A stretch of DNA of 64,000 bases, from contig JAJEKV010000005.1 of assembly GCA_021234155.1 (NCBI GenBank), positions 13,137,787 to 13,201,786 on the forward strand. Direction: 5' to 3'. This document shows positions 24,725 to 56,109 of the stretch, piece after piece; position 1 is the first letter of the stretch; each line of letters begins with the position of its first letter. The stretch comes from Isoetes taiwanensis (taxonomy: Eukaryota; Streptophyta; Lycopodiopsida; Isoetales; Isoetaceae). The notes beneath the pieces were generated by a model. The model saw only the letters and a program-made list of their open reading frames with translations, was not told where the DNA came from and made no database searches. Position numbers and translations under genes: made by a program.

Positions 24725-26885
24725 ATGGCAGCTGGTCATGCATCTATATCAGGCGGCGCCGATGGCCATGCATCTACATCCAGCGCCGCCAGTGGTCATG
24801 CATCATCATCTAGGGGTGCACGGTGTCGCGCGGTCATGGCAGGGTTACGGGGGCTGCAGCAGCACGTGGAAGAATTGTATGTAGAAATACTGGTGGTCAA
24901 AGGAGAGGTCCTGAGTGGGGATTTGTCAAGGAATTTGGTCAGAATGAGTGGCAATGTGTGTTTTGTGGGTACACATCAATAAATGGATATGCGACAAGAA
25001 TTCGAGCTCATATTTTACGGGACTCTAAAATTGGGGTGCAAACTTGTACGGCATCTGCTGACATACGACAAGATGCAATTGAAGTGTTGGGTCGAGAAAA
25101 GAACATCAGCAGAAAAACACAACCAAGGGATAGTCAAGGACCGTCATCGTGCCAAGCAGAAGAGATCAATTACACCACCCCTCCTGCAGCACCAATGTAC
25201 CAATCAGAGGGTGGACTAGGGTCGATAGGAGGGTTAAGTACGGGCGAAAAAAGAATGGCAGAGACAATTGAAATAGTGGAAAGACAGACTAAGCAACAGA
25301 GGATTCACCAGTGTTTAACATCAGAGCAACTGAAGAAGACGCAATTGAAGGTTGTAGAGGCATTTTTATATGCCGGATTGTCTCCACATGTTTTAGAACA
25401 CAAAGCAATGAAAGAAGCCTTCCAAGAAGTTGCCAAAGCGGGGTTGGCTTTCAAATTGCCATCATACAAGCATGCTAATAACAAAATGGTGGATGAAATA
25501 CACGGGAAAATGGTCGAGAGGGTGGAGATGAAGTTGTGTCGTGTTACTGAAGCCAGGCCAGCTTCGGTTGGAGCAATGTAAACAAGGACCATCTTATAAA
25601 CTTCATGATCGTCTATCTAGGGGGCAAAGTGTTTTTGAAGACCGTGAAAACTAAAACTGATCAGGTGACAGGAGATTGGATTTTTCAGAAAATAAAGGCT
25701 GTGATAGAGAGTTTGGACTGAAGAGAATATTTAGGTTATGATGGATAACGCGTCTAATTGTAAGTTAGCGGGTGAATTGTTGGAGTCCGAATTTCTAGGA
25801 TTGCACGCCACCAGCTGCCAATGCCATTGCCTAAACTTGTTGCTCAAGGACTGGTTTTCACAGCACACTTGATCAAAGATCCCATTCAAAGGGCCCGTCG
25901 TCTTGTGAAATTCATCACAAAGAAGCCAGCAATTTACGCCATATACAAGTCATTGTGTCAGAAGGCCCTAGCACTCATGAATTCTGGCCAGACTCGGTTT
26001 GGTTCCAATTACATTTGTCTTGAAAGAGTGCTTAGGTGTCGCGACCCGATTATCTCGACCTTCAACCATACAGACTTCTTTGAATGAGAGAGGAGGCAGA
26101 AAGGCAAAAATGCATCACAACACCGGCAGCAAGCCGCTGCCCTTCGAGAAATGCTTGGGCGGGAGACATTTTGGAAAGGCGTAAAGAATGTTGTGAGGTG
26201 CATGCAACCCGTTTGTCATGCCATCAAAACCCTTGATTCTTCGAAGGCAAGTACTGGCAAGGTCTGGAGGTGTTGGCACTCGATACGATCGTTCCTAGAA
26301 CGTGAGGGGCCCAACGCACCCTTTGACAATGCCAAGCGCACAACATTGTTCAGGGACTTCATTGTACGATGGAAGAAGTCGTACAATGACCTTCATGGCG
26401 CCGCACATGCCTTAGACCCACACAACCACAATATGGACCAGCATACGGATGAAGAAGTCATGGGTTCGTTGAAGAAGGTTGCAAAAATGTATTATCCTAA
26501 TAGCTTGGACTACAAGCTTTTCATTGCTCAGTTAACCGAATACCAGAACTTGAGTGGAAAATGGGCAGATGAAGAGCTTCAAGACGCACTGGAGAGCCAT
26601 AAGAAGGAACTAAATATGGAATCTTATGCATGGTGGCAAGCCCACGGACAAGTTACTGATACATTACAGGCTCTTGCAATGACTATCCTCTCCTTGGTAT
26701 CCTCCAATAGTGCAAGTGAGAGGAATTGGAGTGTCTATAAGTACATACACAGTGTCACACGAAATCGCCTGCTACATAAGAAGGCTGACAAAATTGTATA
26801 TAACTTCTCAAACTGGCGGCTTTTGAATCGCAACAGTGGTGCAGCCATAGTCGATAAGGTACAGTTTCATTTCATGGATACCTAA
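24725..26885 (+). pseudogene. hAT transposase (BED finger, DUF659, dimerisation domain)
   Basis: The ATG at 24725 opens a frame with repeated GHAS units (GHASISGGADGHASTSSAAS). A shift near 24840-24880 leads into a BED-type zinc finger (EWQCVFCGYTSINGYATRIR, then AHIL). The DUF659-like core follows in pieces: KDHLINFMIVYLGGKVFLKT (25590), MDNASNCKLAGELLESEF in another frame (25741) and MNSGQTRFGSNYICLERVLR (25977). The last 244 codons (26151-26885) are open. They end in the hAT C-terminal dimerisation motif, TILSLVSSNSASERNWSVYK and NRLLHKKADKIVYNFSNWRL. At least four frameshifts make it inactive as written. The catalytic triad cannot be judged reliably. Confidence 0.85.
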
Positions 26886-28327: not shown

Positions 28328-28530
28328 TGCAGATGCGGATCTGCTGGAGCTTGATTTGCGTTGATAATCAGTGCGTGGGCAATGGCGCATCTCCATATTG
28401 CTATGTTGCAGATACAGATGCGGCTACAATTATGTGGCTAATTTGCACAGATGCGGATATGCCGGAGCTATATTTGTGTTTGCAATCAATGCGAGGGTGG
28501 ATGCAGGTGTAATGGCACATATGTATGCTG
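28328..28530. repeat. diverged tandem duplication next to the retrotransposon
   Basis: A unit beginning ATTTGCAGATGCGGAT (28326) recurs as ATTTGCACAGATGCGGAT (28441), offset about 115 bp, with several substitutions. It belongs to the target DNA into which the 18-kb element inserted. Confidence 0.6.
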
Positions 28531-28534
28531 CTAT
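28530..28534. repeat. left target-site duplication GCTAT
   Basis: GCTAT directly precedes the 5' LTR and is repeated directly after the 3' LTR at 46576-46580. Five bases is the duplication length expected for a Ty3/gypsy integrase. Confidence 0.95.
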
Positions 28535-28536
28535 TG

Positions 28537-28588
28537 TGACGGTCCAGGGGAATATACGTCATAAATACGTATATTCCTGGATCCGTCA
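28537..28588. repeat. imperfect hairpin at the LTR edge
   Basis: TGACGGTCCAGGGGAATATA pairs imperfectly with TATATTCCTGGATCCGTCA, an extended inverted repeat of about 22 bp per arm beginning two bases inside the LTR. The same structure opens the 3' LTR at 44933-44984. It could be an integrase or regulatory-protein site, or a chance fold; its preservation in both LTRs follows simply from their common origin. Confidence 0.7.
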
Positions 28589-28692
28589 CTATACAAGTCT
28601 ATCTTCATAGCCTTGTATACCATAGGTTGTGGCACTAGGGGCATGGCTAAGTTATTCTCATAACTTAGCCAACCATAGGTTAAGCCATTATC

Positions 28693-28793
28693 CACGTGGC
28701 CTTAACCTATTGGGGCACCGCCACACAGGACTCACCCGATTGGTGCCACGTGGCATCCTAGGTGGACCTAACTTATATAGGCATAAACCCTAA
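28693..28793 (+). promoter_or_regulatory. LTR promoter: two G-boxes, TATA box, telo-box
   Basis: CACGTG G-boxes occur at 28693-28698 and 28747-28752, the second inside the palindrome GCCACGTGGC. A TATA box TTATATAG lies at 28773-28780. A telo-box AAACCCTAA lies at 28785-28793. The same arrangement exists in the 3' LTR (G-boxes 45090 and 45146, TATA 45172, telo-box 45184). G-boxes are bound by plant bZIP/bHLH factors and telo-boxes are common in promoters of histone and translation genes. The order marks this as the U3/R boundary. Actual expression is unknown. Confidence 0.7.
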
Positions 28794-30159
28794 CCCTAGA
28801 CCTCTTTCCAGCCCTAGCACCCAGAGACTCACCTACTCGTTCGAAACCCCGTTTCGAACATCGTTTGCTGTGGCATAGACTGGTGCAGCAACCCCAGCAG
28901 GGTAGACTCGTTCTTGGAGTAGGGCGGCATCTCATGAAGGGGAGACCATGGAGGCACACGGATGCGGAGGGAGAGCCGGGGAGGCGGGTATGTAGGATAG
29001 TAGTTGTGATAGCTCATCCGGAATTAGCATTCCATATGTGCTAGTATCTTGTATCTAGAGTAGAGCCATCCTAGAACCCATATTCAACATCTTGAACCCT
29101 AATCAAGGAACCCCTAACCATTAGTTAGTTGTATGATTAGGTTAAGATGTTCTTCTTATGATTATTCTCATGATGTGATGATTATGTGATGATGGTTGAT
29201 CATGTTTGTTCCTCTGGTATTGGGAAGGGGGGTAGAGACCTAGAGCCATATGTAGTATGCTCCTAGAGTAGATCCCTTAGTTCCTATTAGTTGCGGCTGT
29301 GCATAGGAGCCCACCGGGCTATTGAGGCTATGATATGACTCGGCACCATATAACGGGGCTAGAGGGAAAGTGGAGGGAGGATCCCGCCGAAAGTGGGGGG
29401 CTTGAGGGGGATCCCATAGTGGGCTAGGCTTATGGTCGGTCACTTGTGTGGGCGAGCATGGGTCCCGACACCTCACGGGCAATGGTGTTGCCACGCCTCT
29501 CGAGAGCCGCAAGTTTTGGCTTGGCTCTCGTTTTGGGGGTTCGATCGGGTGCAGAATGGTGTGTCGCCACGATTCTCTAGCCGCCCACGGCACCTCTAGA
29601 TCCAGGAAGGGGAGATGCAACCCTTCTGCCTCATCGGACGGGGAGATGCAACCGGAGTAGTCCCGATGGGTGATGCCATGGGATTGCGTGTCCAGGAAGG
29701 CTAGAGTCCTGTCGAGCTGATCCAGCCCATTTGCAAAGTATGCACGTGAGGGGCGGATGGAGTGGTCAACCCTAGCCATTGTTCTATGCCAGCCCCGCCA
29801 TTGCCATGACTCAGTCTGTTCTATCTTGAGGCCTGGCCCGGTCGGTCATCCTCCTCATACGAGTCCGAGGCGGGTAGGAGCTCTCATGTTTTATGGTTCG
29901 TGATTATCATCTTTGCCTTGGTTTATGTGTGATGCACTACCCTTGAGGTATTTGTATATGTTGATGCTAGTTCGACGTGTTATCGCCATTTGTTATAGGA
30001 GCCCATAGGGGAAGGGCGCAAGACACCTTCGTGTTCCCCTTCCGCACTAAGAGTCACCTCGAGTGCGGGGGTAGCAGAAGGGCCCATGCGGTTGTTGAGC
30101 CGGATGGGGATTTCTGCCGTGTACCACGGCGGCGTGACGTTTGAAGGAGGGCGTCACAA

Positions 30160-30171
30160 TGGTATCGGCGA
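30160..30171 (+). promoter_or_regulatory. primer binding site, initiator tRNA-Met type (altered)
   Basis: TGGTATCGGCGA begins two bases after the LTR. The usual plant tRNA-iMet site begins TGGTATCAGAGC. The first seven bases agree, and the difference is loss of bases in CAGAG, the same kind of change seen at CAG/CTG elsewhere in the window. Confidence 0.75.
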
Positions 30172-30624
30172 TGTTCTTGGTTGACCAAGAACTAGCACCG
30201 ACCATAACCATGAAGTAGTCTAACAGGCTTATAGGGGTGTGAAATAAACATTTCCACCATGGAACATGAAAAATGGGAAAAAATTTTCTCCTAGGTAGTG
30301 GGTCAGGACTTAGGTTAAGTGTTAGACGAAAGTTGAGTGAGTCAAACTCATCTTCTAGTAAATTTGGAGTGAAAGTTATGCATCTGCATCAAATTTCACC
30401 TAAAATGGGTCGAAGAATCATGCCAATCGGAGACCCAGGTGAAAAATGGCGCAAATTCATAAATTGCACTTCGAACCATTAGAAAAATTCGAAAATTTAA
30501 GTATAATATCAATTAATATAGATTTAACATATACATTAATAATTAAATAATTACTAAATAGTTTGTAATTAATAAGGGGGGCTAATAAATAGGGGTAATT
30601 ATGGTAGGAGAATATTCCCAGGGA

Positions 30625-30727
30625 CCCTCCTTTTTAAATATCTGACACCTCATTCTCTCTCTCCAACCCTTCACCTTCACCTCTCTCTTGCTCAGCCTTA
30701 CGTCACCCATCTCCTGAACCACAAGAT
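30625..30727 (+). promoter_or_regulatory. candidate internal promoter and leader of the H3-like gene
   Basis: A TATA-like TTTTTAAATAT at 30631-30641 is followed by a pyrimidine-rich stretch (CATTCTCTCTCTCCAACCC and more, 30650-30695) and then the ATG at 30728. TATA plus a CT-rich leader is a common plant core-promoter layout. It suggests the H3-like gene may be transcribed separately from the LTR. This is inferred from sequence only. Confidence 0.45.
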
Positions 30728-31814
30728 ATGGCACGCACCAAACAAACAGCTAGGAAGTTTGGCGAGCGCCCCACCCTCTCTATGGCGCAGGTAGCAGCGG
30801 GTCGGCACGTGAAGAAAGTTCCTGAGCACCTTCGGCCGAAGCCTGGAGGCGAGGAATCGCCCTCAAGCAGCAGCAGCAGCGACCAGAGCTTTCACGATGC
30901 CGAGAGCAGCCCCAGAAGACCCCGGCCGGCTAGAACACAAAGAACTGACGAAGTCGCTACTGGGGCCTCGCATAACCGAGGTGGAGGAACAGGTTGAAGA
31001 ACGTGGAGGAGCAGCACCACCACCACCGCATCAAGAAGCTGGCCCTTGCGGCCCAAAAGAAGGGGAAGGAAAAAGTCATGAGTGGCCAGAGGAGAGGGCC
31101 TTGTAAAAGAAGGTTTGGAGCGTGGAAAGGGAGCTGAGGGAGCAAGAAAGGCGCATTTAAGAGAAGGAACGACGCCTCGCCCGGACCGTTATTGAAGAGC
31201 CCCACGGAGGAGGAGCCACAAGTGGGAGGAAGAGGAGGAGGAGGGGCAGCAGGACCCCGACGCTAGGGCCACCCCTACCCCAGTGGCCGGAACCACCTAA
31301 GGTGGTGAAGAAGCAAAAGGTAGGAGTTGGCATTCGCCCAGGACCCATGAAGTTTAAGCGGAAGATGGTGGCATACATAAGGAGTACCTTCGCTGCATTT
31401 GGACGAGGTACAATGAGTGGTATTACCCGCCCGGGAGGTGCAAAACAAGCGTCGTGGGGCGCAGGCGAAGAAGAACCAGCCCAAGCCACCCCACCTAGGC
31501 GGAAAAACCCAAGAGGGTTCACCACGGGCGAACGAGCAGCCTCGCCCGGGTGTTTAGGGAGATTCGGCACTTCCGGATGTGCATGAATCTCCTCGATAAG
31601 GAAGGCGCCCGAGGCGTCTCCTTAGAGAGGTGTTGCGGCGAGTTCCGGACCGATTATAGGGTTACCCCTCTAATGACCGGGGCCCCCAAGAGGCTTCCGA
31701 AGCGAGCTGGTCCAACTCTTGAGGAAGGGAACCTGCGCTATCCATGCTAAGAGAGTTGCCCTTATGCCTAAGGATATTCACTTAGCACGGAGGATCAAGA
31801 GAGAGAGGCCTTAG
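30728..31814 (+). pseudogene. histone H3-like gene captured by the retrotransposon (frameshifted)
   Basis: The ATG at 30728 starts MARTKQTARKFGERPTLSM. After Met, residues 1-9 equal the histone H3 tail, with K4 and K9 present and S10 replaced by Phe. The first frame closes after 89 codons, following a Ser-rich and Arg/Pro-rich stretch. A long charged linker in several frames follows (30990-31520), containing KKRR-type basic and Glu-rich segments. From 31521 an H3 fold is readable across small frameshifts: RPGV-FREIRHFR (H3 RPGTVALREIRKYQ), NLL, IRKAP, RLVREV-like, QEASEA, and finally [19 protein letters not shown] with IKRERP and TAG at 31812. The last block differs from canonical H3 at only a few positions. 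Total span is about 362 codons against 135 for H3. Whether it is closer to H3.1/H3.3 or CenH3 cannot be settled by eye. Confidence 0.85.
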
Positions 31815-32179
31815 GCCTCAAATTTTTGTAAATTTTGTTAGAAAAAGAGAACTCCCATGTAATTGTGTTTCTTATTAATATAAAAGTTACTTTCCCTCTG
31901 TAAATTCGAAAAATGTTGTATGCTTGAAATATAGGAAATAGAATCCAATTGTGGTAGAATTCTTCATAGCATGTCTAGAAACACCCTAGAAATCATGACT
32001 ACAACAAAATTTTGGCAAAAAAATCATCAAAAATCTTTGAAAATCAGGCCAACCCGGGTGAGACCGGCGCCTAAGGCCTCTGCGCCCCTCGACAGCAGAA
32101 AGTGGCGTTTCATTGGATTCACCCGACTGGGCCCAAAATCATGCTTTTAGATGTCAGTTTTGCTCAAAATAAGTTGCTA
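31815..32179. other. 3' region of the H3-like gene and spacer
   Basis: AT-rich after the stop, with TATTAATATAAAAG at about 31872 as a possible polyadenylation context. Further on, a GC-rich patch with GGTGAGACC and ATTCACCC (32055-32130) resembles one at 32685-32755, suggesting a once-continuous segment split by the LINE relic. Confidence 0.35.
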
Positions 32180-32645
32180 GTTAGGTTAGAATTGGCCCAA
32201 TTAGCCATATTAGCATCTTTAGAATTGGCCCAATTAGCCCGATTATGTGAAGGCGGACTTGTCTAAGCATAAGAAACAGACTATTGCCAGATATAGATTG
32301 AGCTCCCACCACCTTATGGTGGAAATAGGGAGATGGAAGGGAATTCCGAGGGAAGACAGGAAATGTCCCTTCTGCACCCTTGATGCTATCGAGGATGAGA
32401 AACATGTCTTCATTGAGTGTCCGGAGTATGTACATATAAGAGAGAAATTTGGCATATATCAATCTCAATTGGACAGTATTTTCGAGTTGGAGCCACACAT
32501 CCTTGGTTGCTTTGTCAAGGAAGTGGACTCACACCACTCATTATTGATGAGTTTGAGCAAATAAGTGTAAACCAGCCCCATGACCTTCAAGGTCCCAAAC
32601 GGGCTTCAGATAATCTATTATTATTATTATTATTATTATTAAATT
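32180..32645 (+). mobile_element. LINE 3' relic: zinc-binding domain and (TTA)n tail
   Basis: An open frame at 32247-32564 reads ARYRLSSHHLMVEIGRWKGI, then REDRKCPFCTLDAIEDEKHV and FIECPEY. This is the zf-RVT type C-x2-C-x-H-x-C domain at the C-terminus of plant LINE polymerases. After the stop at 32562 comes a short 3' UTR and a (TTA)n tail at 32614-32641. It is a 5'-truncated insertion inside the chromovirus leader. A direct repeat AGAATTGGCCCAATTAGCC at 32187 and 32220 lies at its left edge. Confidence 0.75.
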
Positions 32646-33748
32646 CCCAAAAATAACCAAAAATTGGCCCAAAACAGGCCAACCGGGTGAGACCGCGCCA
32701 AACGCGTCTGCGTCCGCGACGCGGAGGCCATCCGCGCGGATTCACCCGGGTCAGCCCATCTTTGGCCCAAATTAGCCAAATTTGATCCAACAAATTGCCA
32801 TGTAGTGTTTCTTGCTTTGTTTTGCTTAAGTTTGCACTTCATGGTAGTTCATTTAGACACCCAGAGCCATAGAACCAAGGTCGTCTTAGGTAGGTACCTT
32901 TTTGCACGAACCCCGAGGTCACCCATAGTCTATAAAAATAGGTCCCATTTGCCATTTTTCCTTCTACTGAATCTGCTCCGGCCCCTTAGGCGATTTTTTT
33001 CAACCTCCACTCCATCCTTGCAAGCCATTTTCTACACCCTTTGCCTCAATGGCGCCCAAAGAACTTCGAGAGATGGTACAATCTTTGCAAGCCATATCCA
33101 TCAGCTTCACGTAGATCAAGCCTTCTCTCGTGTTTGATCACTTGTTTGATCTTCATGCAACCTTGACTAGAACACCCTACTACACCGGACATTATGTGCC
33201 AATATGACCCGGCAGTCCCGCCTTTGGGAAGTTAGGGCCTCCTAGGGGAGGGAATTGGGTTTCTCTTGAGACACTTACCCAAGCCTTAGGTCGAGAGTTG
33301 GCGCGGGATCCAAAGGCAAGAAGCGGCTATGGATAGGACTAGGACCATGCCCGATTACATGACCCGAGACATAATAGGCATAGGTACCTTTCAAATGGCG
33401 ACCCTTGCCCTCTTCATGCACTATAAGTCAATCAACAAAGTAGGGAACCCCTGTTCAGCCCTTAGACTTAGCGCCACTTGATACCCCGTGGGGCCCGGGA
33501 TCAAATCCACGAATATAGAGTCCTCCGCCTCACGAATACTATGGCACGGCGTCGGGGGCACCATCTCTACAGATCCATGAAGACTACGAGCAGCTAGGGG
33601 GCGGAACCCGAATGGGAGAGCAAGGAGGCAACAAGAATGCGAGGTATGCGTTGAGGCATGACGACGGCGTGAGAACGACTACCGACCCACCGGCCGGCAT
33701 CACAGCTTTGTCACCGATAGTCATCGACGGGAGGAGTACATTTTGCGA
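32646..33748. other. leader/spacer of the chromovirus, no gene recognised
   Basis: Includes a GC-rich imperfect inverted repeat (CCGGGTGAGACCGCGC against GCGCGGATTCACCCGG, 32684-32750). Broken frames at 33050-33700 have protein-like pieces (MAPKELREMVQSLQAI at 33050), but no domain I know. Confidence 0.35.
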
Positions 33749-34582
33749 ATGACATCCTCAACTTGTCCCATCGTCAGAATGTGGGTCTTGAATCGACGAG
33801 CTCTTGGGCATGATAGCACACGGGAAGAGCCACAGACCTCATCGACTACTCATACGGGGAGATTCCAAGGAGTGGCATGGAGAGACACTCTTATCTTTGG
33901 GGAGACAATGTCGGACATAGCGACCTATCGGCAGGATAAGGAGATTCATCGGCGGCCAGGAACCTATCATCTCGAGAGGAGGAGTTCCAGCAGATCTGAG
34001 CACACTCTACAAAACCAGGGAAGGGCCCAAGCTCAAGCGGCACCAGTTCGAGCAGGGAGCATGAGGGAAGGGTCCAAAAGCATCAACTTGGACAATGCAA
34101 CCAAAGATGTGGAGGATCATGAAGACCGATGGTGGTGGATGCCTACGGTGAAGCGGCTTCGAGAGGAAGGGAAGGGCACCGATCGAGGCGTAGGGAAGGG
34201 CACGGCACTTCGCTACTATCTTCCAGCCCTCAGCCAAGGGCAAATGATAGTCTTCCACAAGGAGTTCAGCCCAAGGGGGGAAGAATCCGTGGCACTTCTC
34301 ATAGCACTTTCGGGCTTCGGGCAGCACTCGAAGATATACGCCCATGCCGATCACATCATTCTTTTCAACAGGGCAGTCGCGCTCCATTGCCTCGACTTTG
34401 CGAGAGGGCACCTTAGGGACGCAACACTTTCAGTGGTAGCAGCAACAGCACCGGAACTTCCGGAACCGGAGATGGCCCGAGCACTTGAAGGAAGATCGAC
34501 GAGGAACATCTTGCGCAACCTCGGCAAAGGCCTCCGATTCAGGGATGTCAAGAACTTCTTCAGGCTTTCGGGAGGCCACTGA
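33749..34582 (+). CDS. unknown ORF between the H3-like gene and gag
   Basis: An open frame of 278 codons from ATG 33749 to TGA 34582, the longest intact frame upstream of gag in this element. The first half is Arg/Ser/Glu-rich and may be out of the original frame. The second half looks folded: RYYLPALSQGQMIVFHKEFS, SVALLIALSGFGQHSKIYAH, FNRAVALHCLDFARGHLRDA and FRDVKNFFRLSGGH. I do not recognise a domain. Its place just before a likely 3' splice site (34793) suggests it could be an additional element-encoded protein or the 5' exon of a longer gag. The competing frames on both strands in this GC-rich region lower confidence that all of it is coding. Confidence 0.4.
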   Translation: MTSSTCPIVRMWVLNRRALGHDSTREEPQTSSTTHTGRFQGVAWRDTLIFGETMSDIATYRQDKEIHRRPGTYHLERRSSSRSEHTLQNQGRAQAQAAPVRAGSMREGSKSINLDNATKDVEDHEDRWWWMPTVKRLREEGKGTDRGVGKGTALRYYLPALSQGQMIVFHKEFSPRGEESVALLIALSGFGQHSKIYAHADHIILFNRAVALHCLDFARGHLRDATLSVVAATAPELPEPEMARALEGRSTRNILRNLGKGLRFRDVKNFFRLSGGH

Positions 34583-34793
34583 ATAATTGTGAAATTTTCT
34601 TAAGTTTTGTGCTAAATGTTTCGTGTACCCATTATGCTAAGATATATCTACCTTATCATGTAATCCTTATGTATTAATGACTATTAACTGTTTTGTCAAT
34701 TGTATGATTTCTTATAACTAAAGATAATTCAATTGCAAGTAAAATTGATCAACATCTAACCCAAATAAAATGTATTGATGATCAATCCTTGCA
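34583..34793 (+). other. probable intron or leader before gag
   Basis: AT-rich 210-bp segment ending in CAATCCTTGCAG at 34793, a good plant 3' splice site. The gag frame is open right up to this AG, and the composition changes sharply on both sides. Splicing of upstream coding sequence onto gag is plausible, but the donor is not identified. Confidence 0.45.
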
Positions 34794-35918
34794 GCAAGGA
34801 ACTCAAGTGCAGGATCTCAAGACCAGCACCGACCACGCAATTGGGTACCAAGGAACTTGTTTGGCAGGGAACAAGAAGATTTTGAGCAGGATATGTCACC
34901 AGAGGCAGTCAACGCAAGGTTGGTGCAGATGAGGAACCAAATGCAACATCTCATCAACTGGGCGACACCTCTCATGAATGCACAGGAAGATGGTCCTCCA
35001 CCTCCACCTTGTTTTCCGGGTGGTGACGAAGTCCCTCAGCAGGAAGGGGAGGGCAACCAGGGGAACGTCAGGGATAGGAGAAGGAAGAGGAGAACCAGGA
35101 GTCCATCATCATCTAGCTCCAGCTCATCAGATAGCTCTTCCAGTGAGGACAGCTCTGGCTCCGACAGTCAGTCGGGCACACCTAAAGCAAGGAAAAGAGC
35201 AAGAAAGACAGATGACTATCAGAAAAAGGTGGATAGTGCTATGAGCAATGTATGGAAGACAAGGAAGCTCGGCCAGTTCTCAGGGAAAGACAGATCAGGC
35301 ATGGAGGCTGAAGCATGGCTTGATGAAATGGAAGAATTTGGCAACTCATACGGTATGAAAGACAAGGACATAGGGAAAGTTGCTACAGCTAACCTTATTG
35401 GACCGGCAAGGATCTGGTGGAAGGGATATGCTAAATCCAACAAGCTGAAGAGGAACAATTGCAGGTTTAAGACCTTCAGCAAGGCTTTCCGCAAGCACTA
35501 TGTGCCAAGGTCTCATACTAGTAGACAGATTCAGCAGTTTTACAGGTTGAATCAGGGTAGCTTATCAGTGGCTAAGTATACCGAAGAATTTATGAGGCTC
35601 AGGCTGCATGTTCCTGGAGTCTCAGAGAGGCAAGCCGTGGATACTTACATTGAGGGGTTGAACAGCAATATCAAGAGGCTTGTTAGAGCAATCAACCCGA
35701 AGTCAGTTGCACAGGCCGAAGATAAAGCTATAAGTTTGGAAGAGGCACCAGCAACTCCAGCAGAGAAACAGTCAACCTTCAGGGGTAAGAGTTCAGCAAA
35801 GATCGTGGGCAATATCGTAGTAAGCAATCAGCAGCTACACCATCGTGGGAGTCAGCAGCAAAAGGTAAGGGTCGAACAAAGCTTTTGGGGACCGGTGAAG
35901 CCACAGAATGCATCGTAA
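34794..35918 (+). CDS. Gag polyprotein of the chromovirus (C-terminus lost)
   Basis: Gag forms the retrotransposon capsid. The frame is open from the splice acceptor at 34793; the first ATG is at 34893. In order: an N-terminal segment SPEAVNARLVQMRNQMQHLI, a basic RRRKRRTR patch, a Ser/Asp-rich low-complexity tract, a second basic patch ARKRARKTDD, and then the conserved gag core (GQFSGKDRSGMEAEAWLDEM, IGPARIWWKGYAKSNK, FKTFSKAFRKHYVPRSHTSR, QFYRLNQGSLSVAKYTEEFM, YIEGLNSNIKRLV). The frame ends at TAA 35918 where a CCHC knuckle would be expected. The knuckle is not readable, because the following 400 bp are disrupted. The two basic patches could act as nuclear localisation signals. Confidence 0.85.
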   Translation, partial: ARNSSAGSQDQHRPRNWVPRNLFGREQEDFEQDMSPEAVNARLVQMRNQMQHLINWATPLMNAQEDGPPPPPCFPGGDEVPQQEGEGNQGNVRDRRRKRRTRSPSSSSSSSSDSSSSEDSSGSDSQSGTPKARKRARKTDDYQKKVDSAMSNVWKTRKLGQFSGKDRSGMEAEAWLDEMEEFGNSYGMKDKDIGKVATANLIGPARIWWKGYAKSNKLKRNNCRFKTFSKAFRKHYVPRSHTSRQIQQFYRLNQGSLSVAKYTEEFMRLRLHVPGVSERQAVDTYIEGLNSNIKRLVRAINPKSVAQAEDKAISLEEAPATPAEKQSTFRGKSSAKIVGNIVVSNQQLHHRGSQQQKVRVEQSFWGPVKPQNAS

Positions 35919-36837
35919 AGTTGCTCTTAAGCCTCCCTAGACGGTTCGGGAAGGAAAAGAGACAGGAATGCATTGAGAAAAGTTATGCTTCAGGTGCTTC
36001 CAGCCAGTAAGGAACAACATATGATTGTCCATTCATCATGCAATTTTGGCAGAACTCTTGGATTGGGACTCCCCAACGAAGTTTTACCAGGACGACGACC
36101 GGCAGGAGGGCGGACTTCATAGATGGTGAGTGCCACATATGTGCAAACATTGAGACAGTGATATAGAGAATCAGCCGATTTGTCATCGCCGGGATCGGAT
36201 CATAGATAGTAATCCTTATGTAGTCCCTCATAGATACGTGTAGCTCTCATAATTTTGCATCTCCTAGATTGGCTGCTCTAATGAAGAACAAGGTATTGAA
36301 GTCTAATCCAAGGCCATGAGCTATGGTAAACGGCGCCATTCGCACACTAAGGGGAGGAGGATCACCTTTGACATAGACCTTAGTGGGGCTAAGTGGCCGA
36401 TGGGGGAGCGTAAGTCATGGACATCGGAAGATACGATCCGATAGTGGGATGGAATTTTTGAAGCCAGCCGAGCCATGATTGATTGCGACCGAATGAAGTC
36501 ACCACCATGACGGCACGGATTAAAAAAGAAATTGATAGTGAAAGGTAAGAAGCTAGATTCTCCCATGCAAAGTGTATTTCTTTGAAGCGGCTAAGGAAGA
36601 GTATAGAAAGAATAAGGTGGACTACATCTTGAGGATGGAATCGGTTGAGCAGGCAAAGCAGGAGGGAAATGACCCAAAGGGGAATCGGGCTGCCCGTGCA
36701 GATAGCAAGGCTTATTTCAGAGTTCAAGGATGTATTTAGGATGAAACCGCAGAAATGCCACCTTATAGGGGTGTGGAATGTGAGATCACATTTGGATCTG
36801 GAAGCCTACCAAGAAAGCCATATAGAATGACCACCCG
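35919..36837 (+). pseudogene. broken protease region of pol
   Basis: No long frame survives. Scattered pieces fit the segment between the protease active site and RT: YDPIVGWN at about 36440, KKEIDSER at about 36520, and ISEFKDVF (36712) leading into a shifted MPPYRGVE-like block that commonly precedes RT in chromoviruses. The protease D-S/T-G site is not visible. Confidence 0.5.
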
Positions 36838-37500
36838 GAGAATTGATTGAGCTCAAGAAACAGCCGAGAATTGCTCGAGCTTGGATTTATAAGAGCAAGT
36901 GTGTCTCCTTTCGAGCACCTATACTCTTTGTGAAGAAGATGGGAGCTTAAGAATGTGCATAGACTATCGCCAGCTTAATAAGCGGGGCGATAAAGAACAA
37001 GTATGCATTGCCAAGGGCGAGATGATCTAATGGACAAGTTATAAGGAGCAAAGGTATTCTCTAAAATTGATTTGAGGGTGGGATACCATCGATAAGAATA
37101 AAAGAAGAGGATATCCATAAGACCGCTTTTCGAGCTTGGGTATGGTCACTTTGAGTTTATAGTAATGCCCTTTGGACTATCGAATGTTCCAAAGAACGCG
37201 TTTATCGCCTCATGAACGACATCTTCGAGAGACTTCTTGGATGAGTTTGTTATTGTCTTCTTCGACGACATCCTAATCTACAAAGCAAGTCCCTTGAGGA
37301 GCATTGTCGGCATCTCGGGGAAAGTGTTGGAGAAGTTGAGGCGTCATCGGGTTGTATGGGAAGCTCTCTAAGTGCCACTTTGCAACAAAGCCGAGTGGAG
37401 TATTTGGGGCATGTAGTAACATCAGAGGGAATCTCCACAAATCCATCTAAGATTGAGGCAATAGTTGATTGGCCAGCTCAAGGAATGTGGCAGAAGTAAG
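36838..37500 (+). pseudogene. reverse transcriptase of the chromovirus (frameshifted)
   Basis: Successive frames read ELIELKKQ, APILFVKK, GSLRMCIDYRQLNK, KNKYALP, KVFSKIDLR, GYH, RIKEEDIHKTAF, YGHFEFIVMPFGLSN, NDIFE, then the catalytic VFFDDILIY at about 37252-37278. YLGHVVTSEGISTNPSKIEA and AEVRSF follow. This is the Ty3/gypsy RT order with an FFDD catalytic box. At least ten small indels break the frame. Confidence 0.85.
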
Positions 37501-38040
37501 AAGCTTTTCGGGTTGGCGGGATATTACGTAAAGTTCGTGAAGGACTTTGCTAAGTGGGCGCCCCCTCTGGCCGGACCTCACTAAGGCCAAGAAGATTAAG
37601 GATTGGACTAGTCATTGGTTAGAGAAAGTCCAAGCTTCTTTTTGAGAAGTTTTAACAACAGCACACCGGTGCTTGTTCTTCGGATCAGTAAAGATAAGTT
37701 GGTAGCAGGATGCAAGCAAGATAGCAGGGGGCGGTCTTGATGCAAGAAGGAAGGGTGATCGCCCACGACTCGAAGAAGATGAACGAGAGCAACGCCACCC
37801 AACCCATGATCAGGAGCTGCTAGCCATTGTCGGGGCATTGAGGATATGGAGGCATTATCTCATGGGAAGGAAGTTTCAGTTGGATACCGATCACCGTGAG
37901 CCTTCAATATCTTTTTCACCCAGCCACTCTCCTCAACTTAAGGCAAAGGAGGTGGATGGAATTCCTTGAGGAGTATGATTTTGATATTATATATAAGCCT
38001 GGTAAGCTTAATGTTGTAGCGGATGCCCTCTCCAGGAGAC
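37501..38040 (+). pseudogene. RNase H domain of the chromovirus
   Basis: Pieces in order: LAGYYVKFVKDFAK (37513), GAVLMQEGRVIAHDSKK (37730), THDQELLAIVGALRIWRHYL (37800) and FQLDTDH (37877). LNLRQRRWMEFLEEYDFDII and YKPGKLNVVADALSRR (37990) follow. This is the standard gypsy RNase H and connection, ending with the ADALSRR motif. It degrades the RNA strand during reverse transcription. The last 150 codons are intact. Confidence 0.85.
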
Positions 38041-39400
38041 CATTTCAGACAAGGACGCATTGTAATGCGATTTCCACTCTTTCGAGTGAGTTTGGCAAGA
38101 AGATTGAGGAGTCCTTGCCAACAGATGTGGACTTCAAGGAGGTATGGGAAAGTCTTTCCAAGGAAGCCAGAACAGATAAGGAGCGGGAAGCCTTCAAGCA
38201 TTATAAGAAGGAAGGCAACCTGTTGTATCACAAGCATAAGTTGTGTGTGCCCGAATCATCAGGGGTAAGGAAGCTAATTCTTCATGACACACATAACAGC
38301 CCAATAGCAGGGCATGCTGGCTTCATGAAGACATATTTCAAGATTCAAAGTAGCTACCGGCGGGGAATGAAGAGGCAGATAGCTGCATATATTCGGGATT
38401 GCCAGTTATGTCAGCAGACCAAAGCGGAGCAACTTCGGATTCCAGGTGCTCTTGAGCCATTGGGGGTGCCAAATGCAAAGTGGGAGGTCATAAGCATGGA
38501 TTTCATCACAGGTCTCCCTAGAACTCTTCGAGGCAAGGATGCATTGATGGTTGTCGTAGATAAGTTATCTAAGATGGCACATTTTGTGCCTTGCAAGACT
38601 ACTGACACCGCATTAGATACTGCCAAGTTATTTGTAAGGGAGATTTTTAGACTCCATGGCATGCCTCGGGAGATAATATATCGATAGGGATTCCAAGTTT
38701 ATGAGTGCCTTCTGGCAGGACCTCTTCAACACCATTCAGACGAAGCTCTCCATGAGCACGGCATATCATCCCCAAACAGATGGCCAGACGGAGAGGACGA
38801 ATCGGATCATTGAAGACATGCTTCGAAGTTATGTGTGGAACAAAGCGGTCCAAGTGGGATGAGTACATCCACTTGGTGGAATTCCGCCCACAACATTGCC
38901 AAAGGGAAGTCATCTCGGATGTCTCCTTTCATGGTAAATTACGGTGCATTACCCGCTTAACCCCGAATACCGGCACAATCCACGTGTCCAAGGTAGAAGT
39001 ATCCCGCCAGATGTTAGGGGATATGCAAACAGACTAGTGGAAGAAGTAAGGGGTTATTTATTGGCAGCAAGAAGAAGGAAGAGTGTAGCCGAGCAACTGT
39101 GGACCGTAAGAGAGTTCAAGGTAGGCGATAGCGCCCGGTTGAAGATAAAGGTGAAGCAAGCCAAGCCTGCGGATTGGGAGCGCAAAGAAGCTTGCCCCTA
39201 GGTGGGCTGGTCCGTTCAAGATTTTGGAGAGAGTGGGCTCTCAAGCCTACAAGTTGGATCTTCAGCCCATCTCAAGGTTCACAAGGTCTTCCACGTAAGT
39301 TTATTAAAAAAGGCACAATCCTAACCCCGAGGAGGTTTTGGATACTCCAACCTTGTTGGAAATGACGGAGAGGAGCAAGTAGAAATAGTGCCGAATTGCT
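38041..39400 (+). pseudogene. integrase of the chromovirus (partly intact)
   Basis: The frame open to 38687 holds the H2C2 zinc domain (LILHDTHNSPIAGHAGFMKT ... CQLCQQTK) and the first catalytic Asp in VISMDFITGLPRTLRGKDAL. After a shift the second Asp and the Glu region follow: [35 protein letters not shown], then MLRSYV and DEYIHLVEF. The C-terminal part reads VREFKVGD, KLAPRWAGPFKILERVGSQA and YKLDLQPISRVHKVFHVS, the GPF/Y module typical of chromoviruses. It inserts the cDNA into host DNA and made the GCTAT duplication. Confidence 0.9.
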
Positions 39401-40274: not shown

Positions 40275-40880
40275 GTTAATTTGTTTTTTCCTTTCCTTGT
40301 ATTCACTGCCTCTACTTACTGAAGCCAAAGAATGATGTCGTTTTATGCACTTCTGCTCTATTAACTCCTACAAGGAAAACCATGAGCTGTATGCATATTC
40401 CAGATTATATATTCAAAAGCTTTATAAATGCACTAATCAGGCTGCAAATTTACATTTCATAACATGTTGGCCTATGGTCCTTACTTGTTATACCTTAAAT
40501 AATGACATTGGCTGCACATTTCTTTCTTCCTGTTATCGATTGTGGTTGGTTGCTTAGTTGGTATGGTTGTGACTTGACTTGGTTCGTTTAGTTATTTAAG
40601 CAAATGTTAGATTCTTCATGGGTCCATTTCCTATACAGATGTTTAGCATATGAAATGCTACTATATAGGGACGTTCCAAATATAAATGCATTTTCCTTGG
40701 CATTTTGCATGTAGGTTTCCCACATTGTGTTCATCAATATCACATGCTTTTCTTTTCTATCCTCATCACATTTATCCTTTGATCAATATTCTAGGGTTTC
40801 TTTTGTATTCTAATGTCACCCTCACAATGACTTTAATTTTTTGGTCTACTTGCTTATCATAAATTTTATCATATAGAATA
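40275..40880 (+). repeat. left arm of the long inverted repeat, outer part
   Basis: Starts GTTAATTTGTTTTTTCCTTT and ends GTCTACTTGCTTATCATAAA plus a few bases. It matches the reverse complement of 42440-43031. Confidence 0.9.
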
Positions 40881-41938: not shown

Positions 41939-42440
41939 AATAGAAATGCCTATTTAAACATATCTACGACGTCATTACAATTCGGACCCAAATATTTTTT
42001 TAATACAACAACGCATATGACACATATATTATCCCCCTTGAAACCCCCTTTGGTTTGGGTGCATATTCACACGGGGGGTAACTTCGGGCATCGAGAGCTG
42101 TTGAATAGGCATATTCACCATTTATTCCTTAATCTACACCGTACATAAAGTTCCTCACTTGTGGGGTATGCATGTACACAATTTGCTATACTGTATAACA
42201 AGATTTGCAAAATATACTAAGATTTGAGGTAATATACTACATGGTGTTGATTTTGTACATGCCAAACATAATTTTAGGGGCTCTCGCTACCCTACGTCAC
42301 CCCCCGTGTGAATATGCACCCAAACCAAAGGGGGTTTCAAGGGGGATAATATATGTGTCATATGCGTTGTTGTATTAAAAAAATATTTGGCCCGAATTGT
42401 AATGATGTCGTAGATATGTTTAAATAGGCATTTCTATGAT
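41939..42440. repeat. inner inverted repeats (~147-bp arms) and central spacer
   Basis: AGAAATGCCTATTTAAACAT and the following bases to 42085 pair with 42290-42439, which ends TTTAAATAGGCATTTCT. The shared segments include TTGAAACCCCCTTTGG and GGGTGCATATTCACACGG. The spacer (42086-42289) encodes nothing. A further short inverted copy of the arm tip lies at 41918-41940. Confidence 0.85.
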
Positions 42441-43031
42441 AAAATTTATGACAAGCAAGTAGACCAAAAAATTAAAGTCATTGTGAGGGTGACATTAGAA
42501 TACAAAAGAAACCCTAGAATATTGATCAAAGGATAAATGTGATGAGGATAGAAAAGAAAAGCATGTGATATTGATGAACACAATGTGGGAAACCTACATG
42601 CAAAATGCCAAGGAAAATGCATTTATATTTGGAACGTCCCTATATAGTAGCATTTCATATGCTAAACATCTGTATAGGAAATGGACCCATGAAGAATCTG
42701 ACATTTGCTTAAATAACTAAATGAACCAAGTCAAGTCACAACCATACCAACTAAGCAACCAACCACAATCGATAAGGGAAGAAAAAGAAATGTGCAGACC
42801 AATGTCATTATTTAAGGTATAACAAGTAAGGACCATAGGCCAACATGTTATGAAATGTAAATTTGCACCGATTAGTGCATTTATAAAGCTTTTGAATATA
42901 TAACGGAATATGCATACGCTCATGGTTTTCCTTGTAGGAGTTAATAGAGCGAAGTGCATAAAAGCGACATCATTCTTTGGCTTGATAAGTAGAGAGGCGT
43001 TGAATACAAGGAAAGGAAAAAACAAATTAAC
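42441..43031 (-). repeat. right arm of the long inverted repeat, outer part
   Basis: Reverse complement of the left arm. Differences are mainly one- or two-base indels such as CTG against CG, and CCAGAT against CCGT. Confidence 0.9.
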
Positions 43032-44917: not shown

Positions 44918-44930
44918 AAGGGGGGGAGAA
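44918..44930 (+). promoter_or_regulatory. polypurine tract
   Basis: AAGGGGGGGAGAA lies immediately before the TG of the 3' LTR, the position required for plus-strand DNA priming. Confidence 0.9.
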
Positions 44931-46575
44931 TGTGACGGTCCAGGGGAATATACGTCATAAATACGTATATTCCTGGATCCGTCACTATACAAGTCTATCT
45001 TCATAGCCTTGTATACCATAGGTTGTGGCACTCGGGGGCATGGCTAAGTTATTCTCATAACTTAGCCAACCATAGGTTAAGCCATTATCCACGTGGCCTT
45101 AACCTGTGGGGGCACCGCCACCACGAGGACTCACCCGATTGGTGCCACGTGGCATCCTAGGTGGACCTAACTTATATAGGCATAAACCCTAACCCTAGAC
45201 CTCTTTCCAGCCCTAGCACCCGAGGAGACTCACCTACTCGTTTGAAACCCCGTTTTGAACATGGCTTGTTGTGGCATAGGTCGCGGCAAAGAGCCCCAAA
45301 GGGTAGACTTCGTTCTTGGAGTAGGAGCGGCATCTCGCGAAGTGGGAGACCATGGAGGCACGGATCTGGAGGGAGAGCTTGAGGGGCAGGTATGTAGGAT
45401 AGTAGTTGTGATAGCTCATCTGGAATTAGCATTCCAGATGTGCTAGTATCTTGTATCTAGAGTAGAGCCATCCTAGAACCCATATTCAACATCTTGAACC
45501 CTAATCAAGGAACCCTAACCATTAGTTAGTTGTATGATTAGGTTAAGATGTTCTTCTTATGATTATTCTCATGATGTGATGATTATGTGATGATGGTTGA
45601 TTCATGTTTGCTCCTCTGGTATTGGGAAGGGGGGTAGAGACCTAGAGCCATATGTAGTATGCTCCTAGAGTAGATCCCTTAGTTCCTATTAGTTGCGGCT
45701 TTGTGCATAGGAGCCCACCCAGGCTATTGAGGCTATGATATGACTCGGCACCATATAACGGGGCTAGAGGGAAGTGGAGGAGGATCCCGCCGAGTGGGGG
45801 CAGGGGGATCCCATAGTGGGCTAGGCTTATGGTCGGTCGCCGTGTGGGGCCGAGCATGGGTCCGACACCTCCTGGGGCAATGGTGTTGCCCTGCCTCTCG
45901 AGAGCTGCAAGTGTTGGCTTGGCTCTCGTTTTGGGGGGTTCAGTCGGGTACGAATCGTGTGTCGCCATGATTCTCTAGCCGCCCACGGCACCTCTAGATC
46001 CCGGGAAGGGAGATGCAACCCTTCTTGCCTCATCGGACCAGGGAGATGCAGCCTGGAGTAGTCCCGATGGGTGATGCCATGGGATTGCGTGATCCAGGAA
46101 GGCTAGAGTCCCCCTGTCGAGCCTGATCTAGCCCATTTGCAAAGTATGCCGAGGGGGGATGGAGTGGTCAACCCTAGCCATTTGTTCTATGCCAGCCCCC
46201 GCCATTGCCATGACTTCCGTGCGCTCTATCTTGAGGCCTAGCCGGTCCGGTCATCCTCCTTACGAGTCCGAGGCGGGTAGGAGCTCTCATGTTTTATGGT
46301 TCGTGATTATCATCTTTGCCTTGGTTTATGTGTGATGCACTACCCTTCGAGGTAGTATTTGTATATGTTGATGCTAGTTCTGACGTGTTATCGCTTCCGC
46401 TGTTATAGGAGCCCATAGGGGAAGGGCGCGCAAGACACCTTCGTGTTCCCTTCCCGCACTAAGAGTCACCTCAGAGTGCGGGGTAGACGAAGGGCCCATG
46501 CGGTTGTTGAGCCGGATGGGGGATTTCCTGCCGAGTGTACGGCCGGGCGCCGTACGTTTAGCAGGGAGCGTCACA
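44931..46575 (+). repeat. 3' LTR of the H3-carrying chromovirus (1,645 bp)
   Basis: Begins TGTGACGGTCCAGGGG and ends GGGAGCGTCACA. It is collinear with 28535-30158. Most differences are short indels, many at CTG/CAG/CCG or in G/C runs, with few plain substitutions. That suggests a fairly young insertion. Confidence 0.95.
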
Positions 46576-46580
46576 GCTAT
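46576..46580. repeat. right target-site duplication GCTAT
   Basis: Matches 28530-28534 and closes the 18-kb element. Confidence 0.95.
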
Positions 46581-53110: not shown

Positions 53111-53539
53111 TAAACCCCGTGAGATTTCTTTGAACCAAGCACCTCTATAAGGTTTATTCAAGCTACGAAATTCCTAAATCTGAAGAAGTTATGGTGGTGC
53201 AAACTAGAAGCATGAATGAAGCTCAAGTACATGCTGAACCAAGTAGGCATTCTCCGCCGGGTTCATTGCCATCCGGTGATGGAATCACCGCTTTCGAGAT
53301 CATAGCTCCACCCCTCAAGCAAAAATATGGTAAGAAAGATCAAGACTTTGATGAGGTTGATGTTTTACTTAAAAATTCTAAGGTGAGTGTAGATCTCTTT
53401 ACTTTTATTAAAGATTGCACCTAGTTACAGAAAAGGGTACTTCAACAAAGCAATAGTGAGGTATTAAATGCTTGTGTGAATTTTATAATCGACCTTATTC
53501 TAGCACAAAGATGAAGAAGACCCCGGAGCATTCACATGT

Positions 53540-53990
53540 TCATTTTGCTTTAGGAGGGTATACCTTTTTTCTAATGTGTTACTTGATGGGGGTTCTCCCC
53601 TAAATATCATGCCATATCATATTATGAAGAAGTGTGGTTTTGAGGTGGATAAGAAGGCTTCTATGTTATTAAAATCTTTTTATAATGCTAAGATTTCTCC
53701 TATTGGTGTGGTGACTAAAGTGCCTGTTAATACAAAAGGCATAACTGTAGCTGCTAACTTTATTGTGGTGGCTTTTGAAGATATAGGAGATGAATCTGAT
53801 ATTTATGACTTACTTTTGGGGAGGAGATGGTTAGCCACTGTGGATGCCAGGCCAGTCTGGTCTCAAGGGAGATGTACCATCTCCAATGGCTCTCAGACCG
53901 CTACAATTTATAACCAAGAGGGCTCCTATGACTCCAAGGAAGAGGTACATTTTATTAAAGAAATGCTAATTGAAGAACCTTTGGGATCTT
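53540..53990 (+). pseudogene. aspartic protease domain
   Basis: An open frame contains VLLDGGSPLNIMPYHIMKKC, in which DGG replaces the usual D-S/T-G of the active site, as seen in some plant retroelements. It then reads ISPIGVVTKVPVNTKGITVA and YDLLLGRRWLATVDARPVWS, the usual flap and ILGRxWL block. It cleaves the polyprotein. This domain is in one intact frame with the start of the following RNase H. Confidence 0.8.
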
Positions 53991-54059
53991 ACAGGATAAA
54001 AAGTACAAAACCAAGAAAATATGAAATGGTTCCTCTTATTATGGAAAGTGCACCTCCCA

Positions 54060-54520: not shown

Positions 54521-54599
54521 GGCCCCTATTTTGACCATTGATGCATCGAAAAAAAGGAGACTCAAGAGATTGTAATCACTAAGAATGGTAAGACTCGAA

Positions 54600-55478: not shown

Positions 55479-55599
55479 GTCCTAGTTTTCTTAGGATGTA
55501 AGTCCTAATTTTGCTCACATTATAAGTCCTATTTCTAAGTTGACAAGAATAGGCAGGATTTCCAAATCTGAGAGTAAGTATGTTCTGTCACATGGTCAT

Positions 55600-56050: not shown

Positions 56051-56109
56051 GTTGATTTTGTGGATGCCTTAGCTTATTTTAGGTGAGATGATGATGAGCG
56101 GGGCCACCG

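What the first reader, a model, noticed from the sequence alone, without database searches (positions are those of the whole stretch)
30728..31814. A retrotransposon that carries its own histone H3
Between the primer binding site and gag of a structurally complete chromovirus lies a gene whose N-terminus after Met is identical to H3 residues 1-9. Its C-terminus reads [19 protein letters not shown], the H3 alpha3 end, and pieces of alphaN, alpha1 and alpha2 lie in order between them. Plant gypsy elements are not known to me to encode histones. A conserved accessory H3 could package element cDNA, mark or insulate its chromatin, displace host H3, or act at centromeres like CenH3.
Basis: partly seen in the sequence, partly recalled or inferred. 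Interest (0 to 1): 0.95.

Follow-up and report, generated by a model that had tools for sequence, protein, structure and literature searches.

The report
Retrotransposons carrying their own histone H3
A family of jumping genes in a plant genome that looks like the quillwort Isoetes carries, at the same place in many copies, its own long-tailed version of histone H3, kept by strong selection, which suggests these elements make a chromatin protein of their own.

Summary
The window copy is a complete 18-kb chromovirus-type LTR element (LTRs 91.5% alike, 5-bp target duplication) with a broken H3-like gene 0.57 kb after its 5' LTR. In the same genome the tail pattern has 229 matches (<=3 mismatches; reversed control 0). 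Of 41 loci read, none has the host H3 tail and 36 show the H3 fold. All 24 loci with flanks have the LTR upstream; 19 show gag downstream. Four diverged subfamilies share the order. One copy reads an unbroken 372-aa protein: H3 residues 1-9, an about 275-residue charged insert, and a complete H3 fold. Fold dN/dS is 0.03-0.06. A second, closer population of H3-fold genes exists; the one read is a 412-aa protein beside an ORF2 homologue, its LTRs unseen. No listed database protein shows this architecture. I infer a nucleosome-competent, element-encoded H3 variant that alters chromatin for the element. Expression, mechanism and occurrence in other species are untested; loci were found by the H3 tail, so how many related elements lack the gene is unknown.

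The parts
28530..28534 (+). target-site duplication GCTAT, 5' side
   Evidence: read directly
28535..30158 (+). 5' LTR
   Evidence: self-comparison, 91.5% to 3' LTR; K2P 0.083 over 1607 sites, 32 indel runs
30160..30171 (+). primer binding site, tRNA-Met-like TGGTATCGGCGA
   Evidence: read directly; tRNA assignment recalled
30633..30640 (+). TATA-like TTTAAATA before a pyrimidine-rich stretch, about 90 bases upstream of the H3 ATG; also in L049, L050 and L051
   Evidence: promoter role inferred
30728..31811 (+). H3-like gene, broken in this copy
30728..30757 (+). MARTKQTARK, H3 tail residues 1-9
31511..31811 (+). remains of the H3 fold, alphaN to alpha3, in two frames
32231..32660 (+). LINE-like fragment ending in a TTA repeat, an insertion in this copy
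   Evidence: no match to this stretch in any of 20 sister loci; zf-RVT 0.014, below cut-off
33046..34582 (+). ORF2, broken here, unknown accessory protein of about 500 aa; a homologue follows the H3 gene in the second family too
34782..35918 (+). gag
   Evidence: PF03732 6.6e-17, PF19259 1.1e-16
35919..39260 (+). pol region, broken in this copy; integrase zinc domain in the 37842-38687 piece
   Evidence: protease, RT, RNase H and integrase zinc domain in order in sister L051
39385..39550 (+). chromodomain remains in several frames (approximate ends)
   Evidence: by eye; clear in sister L057, PF00385 7.6e-12
44918..44930 (+). polypurine tract
   Evidence: read directly
44931..46575 (+). 3' LTR
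46576..46580 (+). target-site duplication GCTAT, 3' side
   Evidence: read directly

Best explanation
A lineage of chromovirus-type LTR retrotransposons took up a host histone H3 gene long ago and keeps it as an accessory gene between the 5' LTR and gag, next to a second accessory gene (ORF2). Shown: recurrence at one position, the full H3 fold, strong purifying selection, several subfamilies, and one locus of a second architecture. Inferred: the product enters the host nucleus, pairs with host H4, and is placed in nucleosomes or (H3-H4)2 tetramers on element DNA or at its target sites. There its unusual N-terminal part (K4/K9-bearing tail in family 1 without the K14-K36 region, then a long charged insert; an unrelated domain in family 2) replaces the canonical H3 tail and so changes how host chromatin treats the element, most likely against silencing. 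The residues that H3 chaperones read (87, 89, 90; roles recalled) are replaced in 16 of 16 unbroken family 1 folds, which fits a separate deposition route. Likelihood: conserved element-encoded H3 gene about 0.97; nucleosome-entry mechanism about 0.45.
For: Recurrence: 229 matches, reversed control 0; 0 of 41 loci read have the host tail and 36 of 41 show the fold at E<=1e-3. Position: LTR and leader upstream in 24 of 24 loci with flanks, gag downstream in 19 of 24. Unbroken 372-aa ORF with Pfam Histone 9.5e-24; ungapped fold match to solved H3 chains, E 1.6e-27. Selection: fold dN/dS 0.062 within (34 pairs) and 0.026 between (86 pairs) subfamilies, out-of-frame pN/pS 1.7 and 2.9; rest of the protein 0.08-0.22. 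Nucleosome residues (roles recalled): K64, R72, R83, K115, R116, V117, C110 and H113 identical in 16 of 16 folds, R63 15, R69 13; 87/89/90 changed to L, T (S once) and R in 16 of 16. Second architecture with ORF2 beside it, one locus read.
Against: No expression, localisation or binding data. Most copies read are broken: 1 of 41 reads open from ATG to its normal end, 3 of 41 through the fold. The sample was drawn with a tail pattern, so conservation of residues 1-10 is built in, and the folds used had to be unbroken and within 20 of 60 residues of a reference. At DNA level the H3 gene is less alike between copies than its neighbours in most loci (for example, in L009, L011, L018, L021, L022, L026 and L028: 81-87% against 93-97% for the leader), which I cannot fully explain. 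F84, Q85 and K79 are changed, so nucleosome entry is not certain. The family 2 protein read lacks the ARTKQTARK tail, so a tail-based function cannot be common to both. ORF2 has no known domain.
Confidence: 0.55

Rival explanations
1. Tether: the H3 fold is a grip on host chromatin (through H4, H3-H3 pairing or nucleosomal DNA) that carries the element's pre-integration complex into the nucleus or to chosen sites, acting with the integrase chromodomain. It need not replace host H3 in bulk.
For: Lies in an element with an integrase chromodomain; fold surfaces largely kept; long basic, coil-like stretch under selection; the family 2 protein read replaces the tail with another domain but keeps the fold. 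Passages read say that plant type II chromodomains have no identified partner (PMC6317226; PMC3350952); whether the chromodomain here is type I or II was not tested.
Against: Chromoviruses in general have chromodomains without any histone (recalled); no link to gag or integrase seen; H3 is a separate ORF.
Confidence: 0.2
2. Mimic or decoy: the free protein displays ARTKQTARK and titrates host H3 writers, readers or chaperones, loosening silencing without entering nucleosomes.
For: Tail residues 1-9 kept exactly in 40 of 41 family 1 loci (but ascertained by the pattern); residues at 87, 89, 90 altered.
Against: A decoy would not need fold dN/dS near 0.03-0.06 or kept DNA-contact residues; the family 2 protein read lacks the tail.
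Confidence: 0.15
3. Packaging: the protein condenses element cDNA or RNA inside the virus-like particle.
For: DNA-binding fold with basic stretches encoded by the element.
Against: A histone octamer needs H4, H2A and H2B; no Pfam Histone match in the ORF2, gag and pol pieces scanned; gag here already has a serine- and arginine-rich stretch (by eye); a simple basic peptide would do.
Confidence: 0.1
4. Centromere variant: a CenH3-like H3 that sends the element to, or competes at, centromeres.
For: Fold 54-60% identical to canonical H3 in four copies with a long divergent N-terminal part, as in CenH3s (recalled).
Against: Loop 1 has canonical length (ungapped alignment), where CenH3s are usually longer (recalled); none of the 60 shown of 176 solved matches is named CENP-A or CenH3; copies lie on many contigs.
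Confidence: 0.05
5. Passenger: an H3 pseudogene carried along, or an assembly error.
For: Window copy and most copies are broken.
Against: Same position in 24 of 24 flanked loci, one unbroken ORF, dN/dS far below 1 across diverged subfamilies.
Confidence: 0.02

Closest known systems
Plant chromoviruses (Ty3/gypsy with integrase chromodomain; Tekay, Galadriel, Reina clades)
   Same: LTRs, PBS, PPT, gag, protease, RT, RNase H, integrase with SH3-like end and chromodomain
   Different: Two accessory genes, H3-like and ORF2, before gag. In the 2019 plant survey the word 'histone' occurs once, about H3K9 binding, and 'additional ORF', 'extra ORF' and 'upstream of gag' do not occur (PMC6317226, passages). 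Clade of this element not tested
Bracovirus viral histone H4 (CpBV-H4/CvBV-H4)
   Same: Core histone encoded by a virus, with an N-terminal tail said to act after joining host nucleosomes (search-listing abstract of PMC5423620; passages of PMC9145170)
   Different: H4 not H3; virulence gene of a DNA-circle virus, not a retroelement; here about 275 residues lie between tail and fold
Giant-virus histones (medusavirus, clandestinovirus)
   Same: H3-like folds in viral genomes; the clandestinovirus H3 fold is 43% identical to Acanthamoeba H3 (PMC9145170 passages)
   Different: Large DNA viruses that also have other core histones; clandestinovirus H3 has a longer loop 1; here H3 alone, loop 1 canonical
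CenH3
   Same: Diverged H3 fold with long N-terminal part
   Different: Loop 1 not lengthened; H3 residues 1-9 kept in family 1
eORFs of plant OTA (Ogre/Tat/Athila) elements
   Same: Extra ORFs in plant Ty3/gypsy elements (PMC6317226 passage)
   Different: Non-chromovirus superclade; not known to be histones (recalled)

Membership tests
H3-fold histones | Histone fold recognised by profile | tested here: met
   PF00125 9.5e-24 (family 1 ORF), 3.2e-41 (family 2 ORF), 4.7e-7 (window piece)
H3-fold histones | H3 rather than H2A/H2B/H4; whole fold aligned | tested here: met
   59 of the 60 shown solved matches (of 176) are named H3, one only 'Histone domain-containing protein'; ungapped over 87 residues, E 1.6e-27
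H3-fold histones | Forms nucleosomes with H4 | not testable with these tools
   Contact residues largely kept, some changed
Canonical H3 (H3.1/H3.3) | Canonical tail with K9-S10, K14, K27, K36 region | tested here: not met
   Only residues 1-9 kept, then FGERPT in 26 of 41 and other non-host residues in 15; absent in the family 2 protein
CenH3 | Lengthened loop 1 | tested here: not met
   Ungapped alignment to H3
CenH3 | Location at centromeres | not testable with these tools
   no ChIP data
Chromovirus (Ty3/gypsy) | LTR pair, target duplication, PBS, PPT | tested here: met
Chromovirus (Ty3/gypsy) | PR-RT-RH-IN order | tested here: met
   sister copy L051: protease, RT, RNase H, integrase zinc domain in order; broken in the window copy
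Chromovirus (Ty3/gypsy) | Chromodomain at integrase end | tested here: met
   sister copy L057, PF00385 7.6e-12; not found by Pfam in L053; frame-broken in the window
Chromovirus (Ty3/gypsy) | Clade by RT tree | not tested
   no reference RT set aligned
Viral histones (bracovirus H4 type) | Histone encoded by a virus-like element, with added N-terminal part | tested here: met
Viral histones (bracovirus H4 type) | Product joins host nucleosomes | not testable with these tools
   needs experiment

The most novel reading that the evidence does not exclude
A retroelement lineage has its own histone system. From one capture it built a family of H3 proteins in two architectures, in hundreds or more copies, that form element-specific nucleosomes with host H4. 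These mark element DNA as self, shield it from canonical H3K9/K27-based silencing, and offer the docking site for the element's own integrase chromodomain, which, if it is of the plant type II (not tested here), has no identified partner so far.
Probability: 0.12. Interest if true: 0.98.

Novelty: new variant of a known kind. Interest (0 to 1): 0.92.

Why it matters
Virus-encoded histones in the review passages that I read come from DNA viruses (PMC9145170; 'retro' at a word start does not occur in its main text). A retrotransposon that keeps a core histone under strong selection would be the first such case that I found, and would make a direct test possible: does a transposon write part of its own chromatin? 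It also offers a natural set of H3 proteins with altered tails and chaperone sites, and a candidate partner for a plant retrotransposon chromodomain. The genome paper took repeats that match UniProt plant proteins out of its repeat library (PMC8566536 passages), so such elements may have been missed or annotated as genes (inference).

Tried and rejected
Host H3 assembled into the element by error: rejected. Single-copy capture: rejected. CenH3: not favoured. Relatives in the protein database: the first search used a joined reading (1569 of 4872 candidates at E<=0.01, best 120 listed), the second its middle part (0 of 4131 candidates at E<=10), the third the unbroken 372-aa ORF (2285 of 6532 candidates at E<=0.001, best 120 listed). 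Of the 145 proteins listed over these searches, 144 carry more than one H3 unit by motif, i.e. merged tandem H3 models; in the listings none is reported as covering more than 59% of the query. Unlisted hits were not seen, proteins outside 0.55-1.75 of the query length could not appear, and annotation that masks repeats would hide relatives. A splice acceptor (TTGCAG) at the start of the gag open frame, whose first Met is at residue 38: seen in the window and 7 loci at first, but only 11 of the 18 sister loci that could be aligned keep it, so a weak lead. ORF2 against the family 2 N-terminal domain: no similarity. Tree of the fold (60 residues): family 2 joins on the long branch between canonical H3 and family 1, and is closer to canonical H3 (51 of 60) than to family 1 (33-40 of 60); compatible with one capture, but two captures are not excluded; the first attempt had misaligned H3 rows and is dropped. 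The fold segment (3 pairs) was saturated and gave no ratio. Structure prediction was not run: its stated rule does not list loci from whole genomes, and the window's own fold is broken. NCBIfam gave nothing. Papers: of ten answered searches, seven were aimed at histones in retroelements and three at the genome or viral histones. Judged by titles and abstract starts of the listed papers, none describes a retrotransposon that encodes a histone; lists were cut (15 of 16; 12 of 46), and only open-licence PMC papers are held. Counting family 1 and family 2 copies by protein was tried and never answered.

Full report
1. What is in the window. At 30728 an ATG opens MARTKQTARK, which is H3 residues 1-9 after Met. 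At 31734-31811, one frame on, lies [26 protein letters not shown] and a stop. The alpha-3 piece gives 44.7 bits against H3, where 40 Markov-resampled windows reached at most 26.6; the tail piece (26.9 bits) and the alphaN/alpha1 piece (20.8 bits) would not stand alone. Pfam Histone matches the unjoined end piece at 4.7e-7; the other two pieces match nothing at E<=1. Several stops and frame changes break the gene in this copy.

2. The element. LTRs at 28535-30158 and 44931-46575 are 91.5% identical; a GCTAT repeat stands on both outer sides, a PBS-like stretch follows the 5' LTR and a polypurine tract precedes the 3' LTR. The LTR pair differs at 66 transitions and 60 transversions of 1607 sites, with 32 indel runs (K2P 0.083); I give no age because no rate for this plant was at hand. 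Gag is open. A sister copy (L051) shows protease, RT, RNase H and integrase zinc domains in order, and another (L057) a chromodomain (PF00385 7.6e-12); a third (L053) gave no chromodomain match. A LINE-like fragment at 32231-32660 has no match in any of 20 sister loci.

3. Which genome. The assembly has 1,658,258,908 bases in 1110 contigs. The Isoetes taiwanensis assembly is 1658.30 Mb in 204 scaffolds plus 909 contigs, made from nanopore reads polished with racon and pilon (PMC8566536, passages). I infer that the window is from that species. Single-base indels in repeats may therefore be assembly errors in part, so 'broken' copies may be less broken than they look (inference).

4. Recurrence. 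The 30-base tail pattern with up to 3 mismatches has 229 matches (98 forward, 131 reverse), 27 of them exact including the window; the backward control has none. I fetched 20 of the 26 other exact places with flanks and 20 of the 73 listed places with 1-2 mismatches, then 9.9-kb stretches around four of the latter. Of 41 loci including the window, none has the host tail STGGKAP, and 36 show an H3 fold match 600-1350 bases after the ATG; L009, L013, L027, L032 and L037 do not reach that threshold. Of the 24 loci with flanks, 24 have the LTR and the leader upstream and 19 show gag downstream; L010, L014, L015, L020 and L023 do not, L010 because its stretch ends early. The order LTR, H3, ORF2, gag, pol is seen in four subfamilies (A in L025, B in L051, C in L050, D in L052), separated by 38-68% at third codon positions of the fold. 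Because the loci were found by the H3 tail, I cannot say what share of related elements lacks the gene.

5. The protein. One copy reads unbroken from ATG to its normal end, 372 aa, and two more read through the fold. Layout in that copy: H3 tail 1-9 within a basic 40-residue start; a serine-rich acidic stretch; a basic, coil-like stretch; an acidic stretch; a basic stretch; a basic linker; and the H3 fold at about 286-372 (charges per segment). Pfam Histone 9.5e-24; ungapped match to solved H3 chains, E 1.6e-27. Fold identity to canonical plant H3 is 52-58 of 96 residues in four copies.

6. Selection. In the 60-codon fold block, codon-position differences over 17 copies were 954, 515 and 3564; 78 of 136 pairs have dS above 0.15, with a median dN/dS of 0.036. 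After dropping one copy with a wrong-frame start, 16 copies give 0.062 within (34 pairs) and 0.026 between (86 pairs) subfamilies; between-subfamily synonymous differences are near saturation (0.73), so that value is rough. The same blocks read out of frame give pN/pS of 1.7 and 2.9. Other segments give dN/dS 0.08-0.22. Limits: copies were found through the tail pattern, so conservation of the first ten codons is built in; the blocks had to be unbroken and within 20 of 60 residues of a reference. A fact that I cannot fully explain: at DNA level the H3 gene is less alike between copies than its neighbours in most loci (for example, in L009, L011, L018, L021, L022, L026 and L028: 81-87% against 93-97% for the leader).

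7. Residues. Of the H3 positions known for DNA, H3-H3 and chaperone contacts (recalled), K64, R72, R83, K115, R116, V117, C110 and H113 are identical in 16 of 16 folds; R63 and A114 in 15, R69 in 13, S86 in 12. F84, Q85 and K79 are changed. Positions 87, 89 and 90, the chaperone-reading patch, are L, T (S once) and R in all 16. I read this as a fold kept for histone-like contacts but with a changed deposition address.

8. A second family. Canonical H3 as query gave 9022 first-look candidates, of which 150 were scored: 15 host-type rows (96-98%), and 135 rows with 71-86% identity that begin at query residue 3 to 36, many in open frames above 400 aa. Only one of these 135 was read. It is a 412-aa ORF with an unrelated N-terminal part, no ARTKQTARK, and an H3 fold (Pfam 3.2e-41; 82 of 96 identical to H3). 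Beside it lies an open frame homologous to family 1 ORF2 (BLASTP 1e-9 and 2e-8). Of 14 fold positions where family 2 departs from canonical H3, four (54, 77, 124, 135) are shared with some or all of four family 1 copies. That fits one capture, but the fold tree does not exclude two. The LTRs, gag and pol of family 2 were not seen.

9. Expression. The H3 ATG follows a TATA-like box and a pyrimidine-rich leader in the window and in L049, L050 and L051, so the gene may have its own promoter (inference). The gag frame has its first Met at residue 38, and a TTGCAG stands at its start in 11 of the 18 sister loci that could be aligned, a weak hint of splicing.

10. Mechanism. The best account is an element-encoded H3 variant that pairs with host H4 and changes chromatin at the element. 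For: fold and contact residues under strong constraint, added or replaced tails, changed chaperone patch, an integrase chromodomain in the same element. Against: no experiment, changed F84/Q85/K79, and a tail not common to both families. A chromatin tether for integration is the main rival; a tail decoy, packaging and a centromere role are less likely.

11. Novelty. Core histones in DNA viruses are known, including a bracovirus H4 described as acting through its tail after joining host nucleosomes (PMC5423620, search-listing abstract; PMC9145170, passages). Seven searches aimed at histones in retroelements listed no paper whose title or abstract start describes a retrotransposon that encodes a histone; subscription papers and preprints were not searched. 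I file it as a new variant: a chromovirus by its own domains, with a viral-histone-like accessory gene not seen in that group before, as far as I could look.

Noticed in passing
L064, L065 (G000:C1034:26615600-26618950): Second H3-fold family: 412-aa ORF with unrelated N-terminal domain and an adjacent ORF2 homologue; 135 scored rows of 71-86% identity to H3 in the genome, one of them read.
   Followed up: partly
window 33046-34582: ORF2, a conserved accessory protein of about 500 aa between H3 and gag, with no Pfam match.
   Followed up: partly
window 30728-31811 against 30159-30727 and 31812-32230: The H3 gene's DNA is less alike between copies than its flanks in most loci; GC-rich indels, assembly error or fast change not separated.
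   Followed up: partly
window 50102-51966 and 58243-60097: Second LTR pair, 93.5% identical, around ORFs at 53504-57436 that look gypsy-type by eye; no H3-like match between them above chance.
   Followed up: no
window 40275-40873 and 42435-43031: 600-base inverted repeat, 96%, around a further hairpin (41940-42437), in the 3' part of the element; looks like a nested insertion.
   Followed up: no
window 34787-34794: CCTTGCAG at the start of the gag open frame, which lacks an early Met: possible 3' splice site.
   Followed up: partly
window 4459-5646, strand -: Beta-glucosidase-like open frame, by eye.
   Followed up: no
window 24814-26885: hAT-transposase-like open frames, by eye.
   Followed up: no
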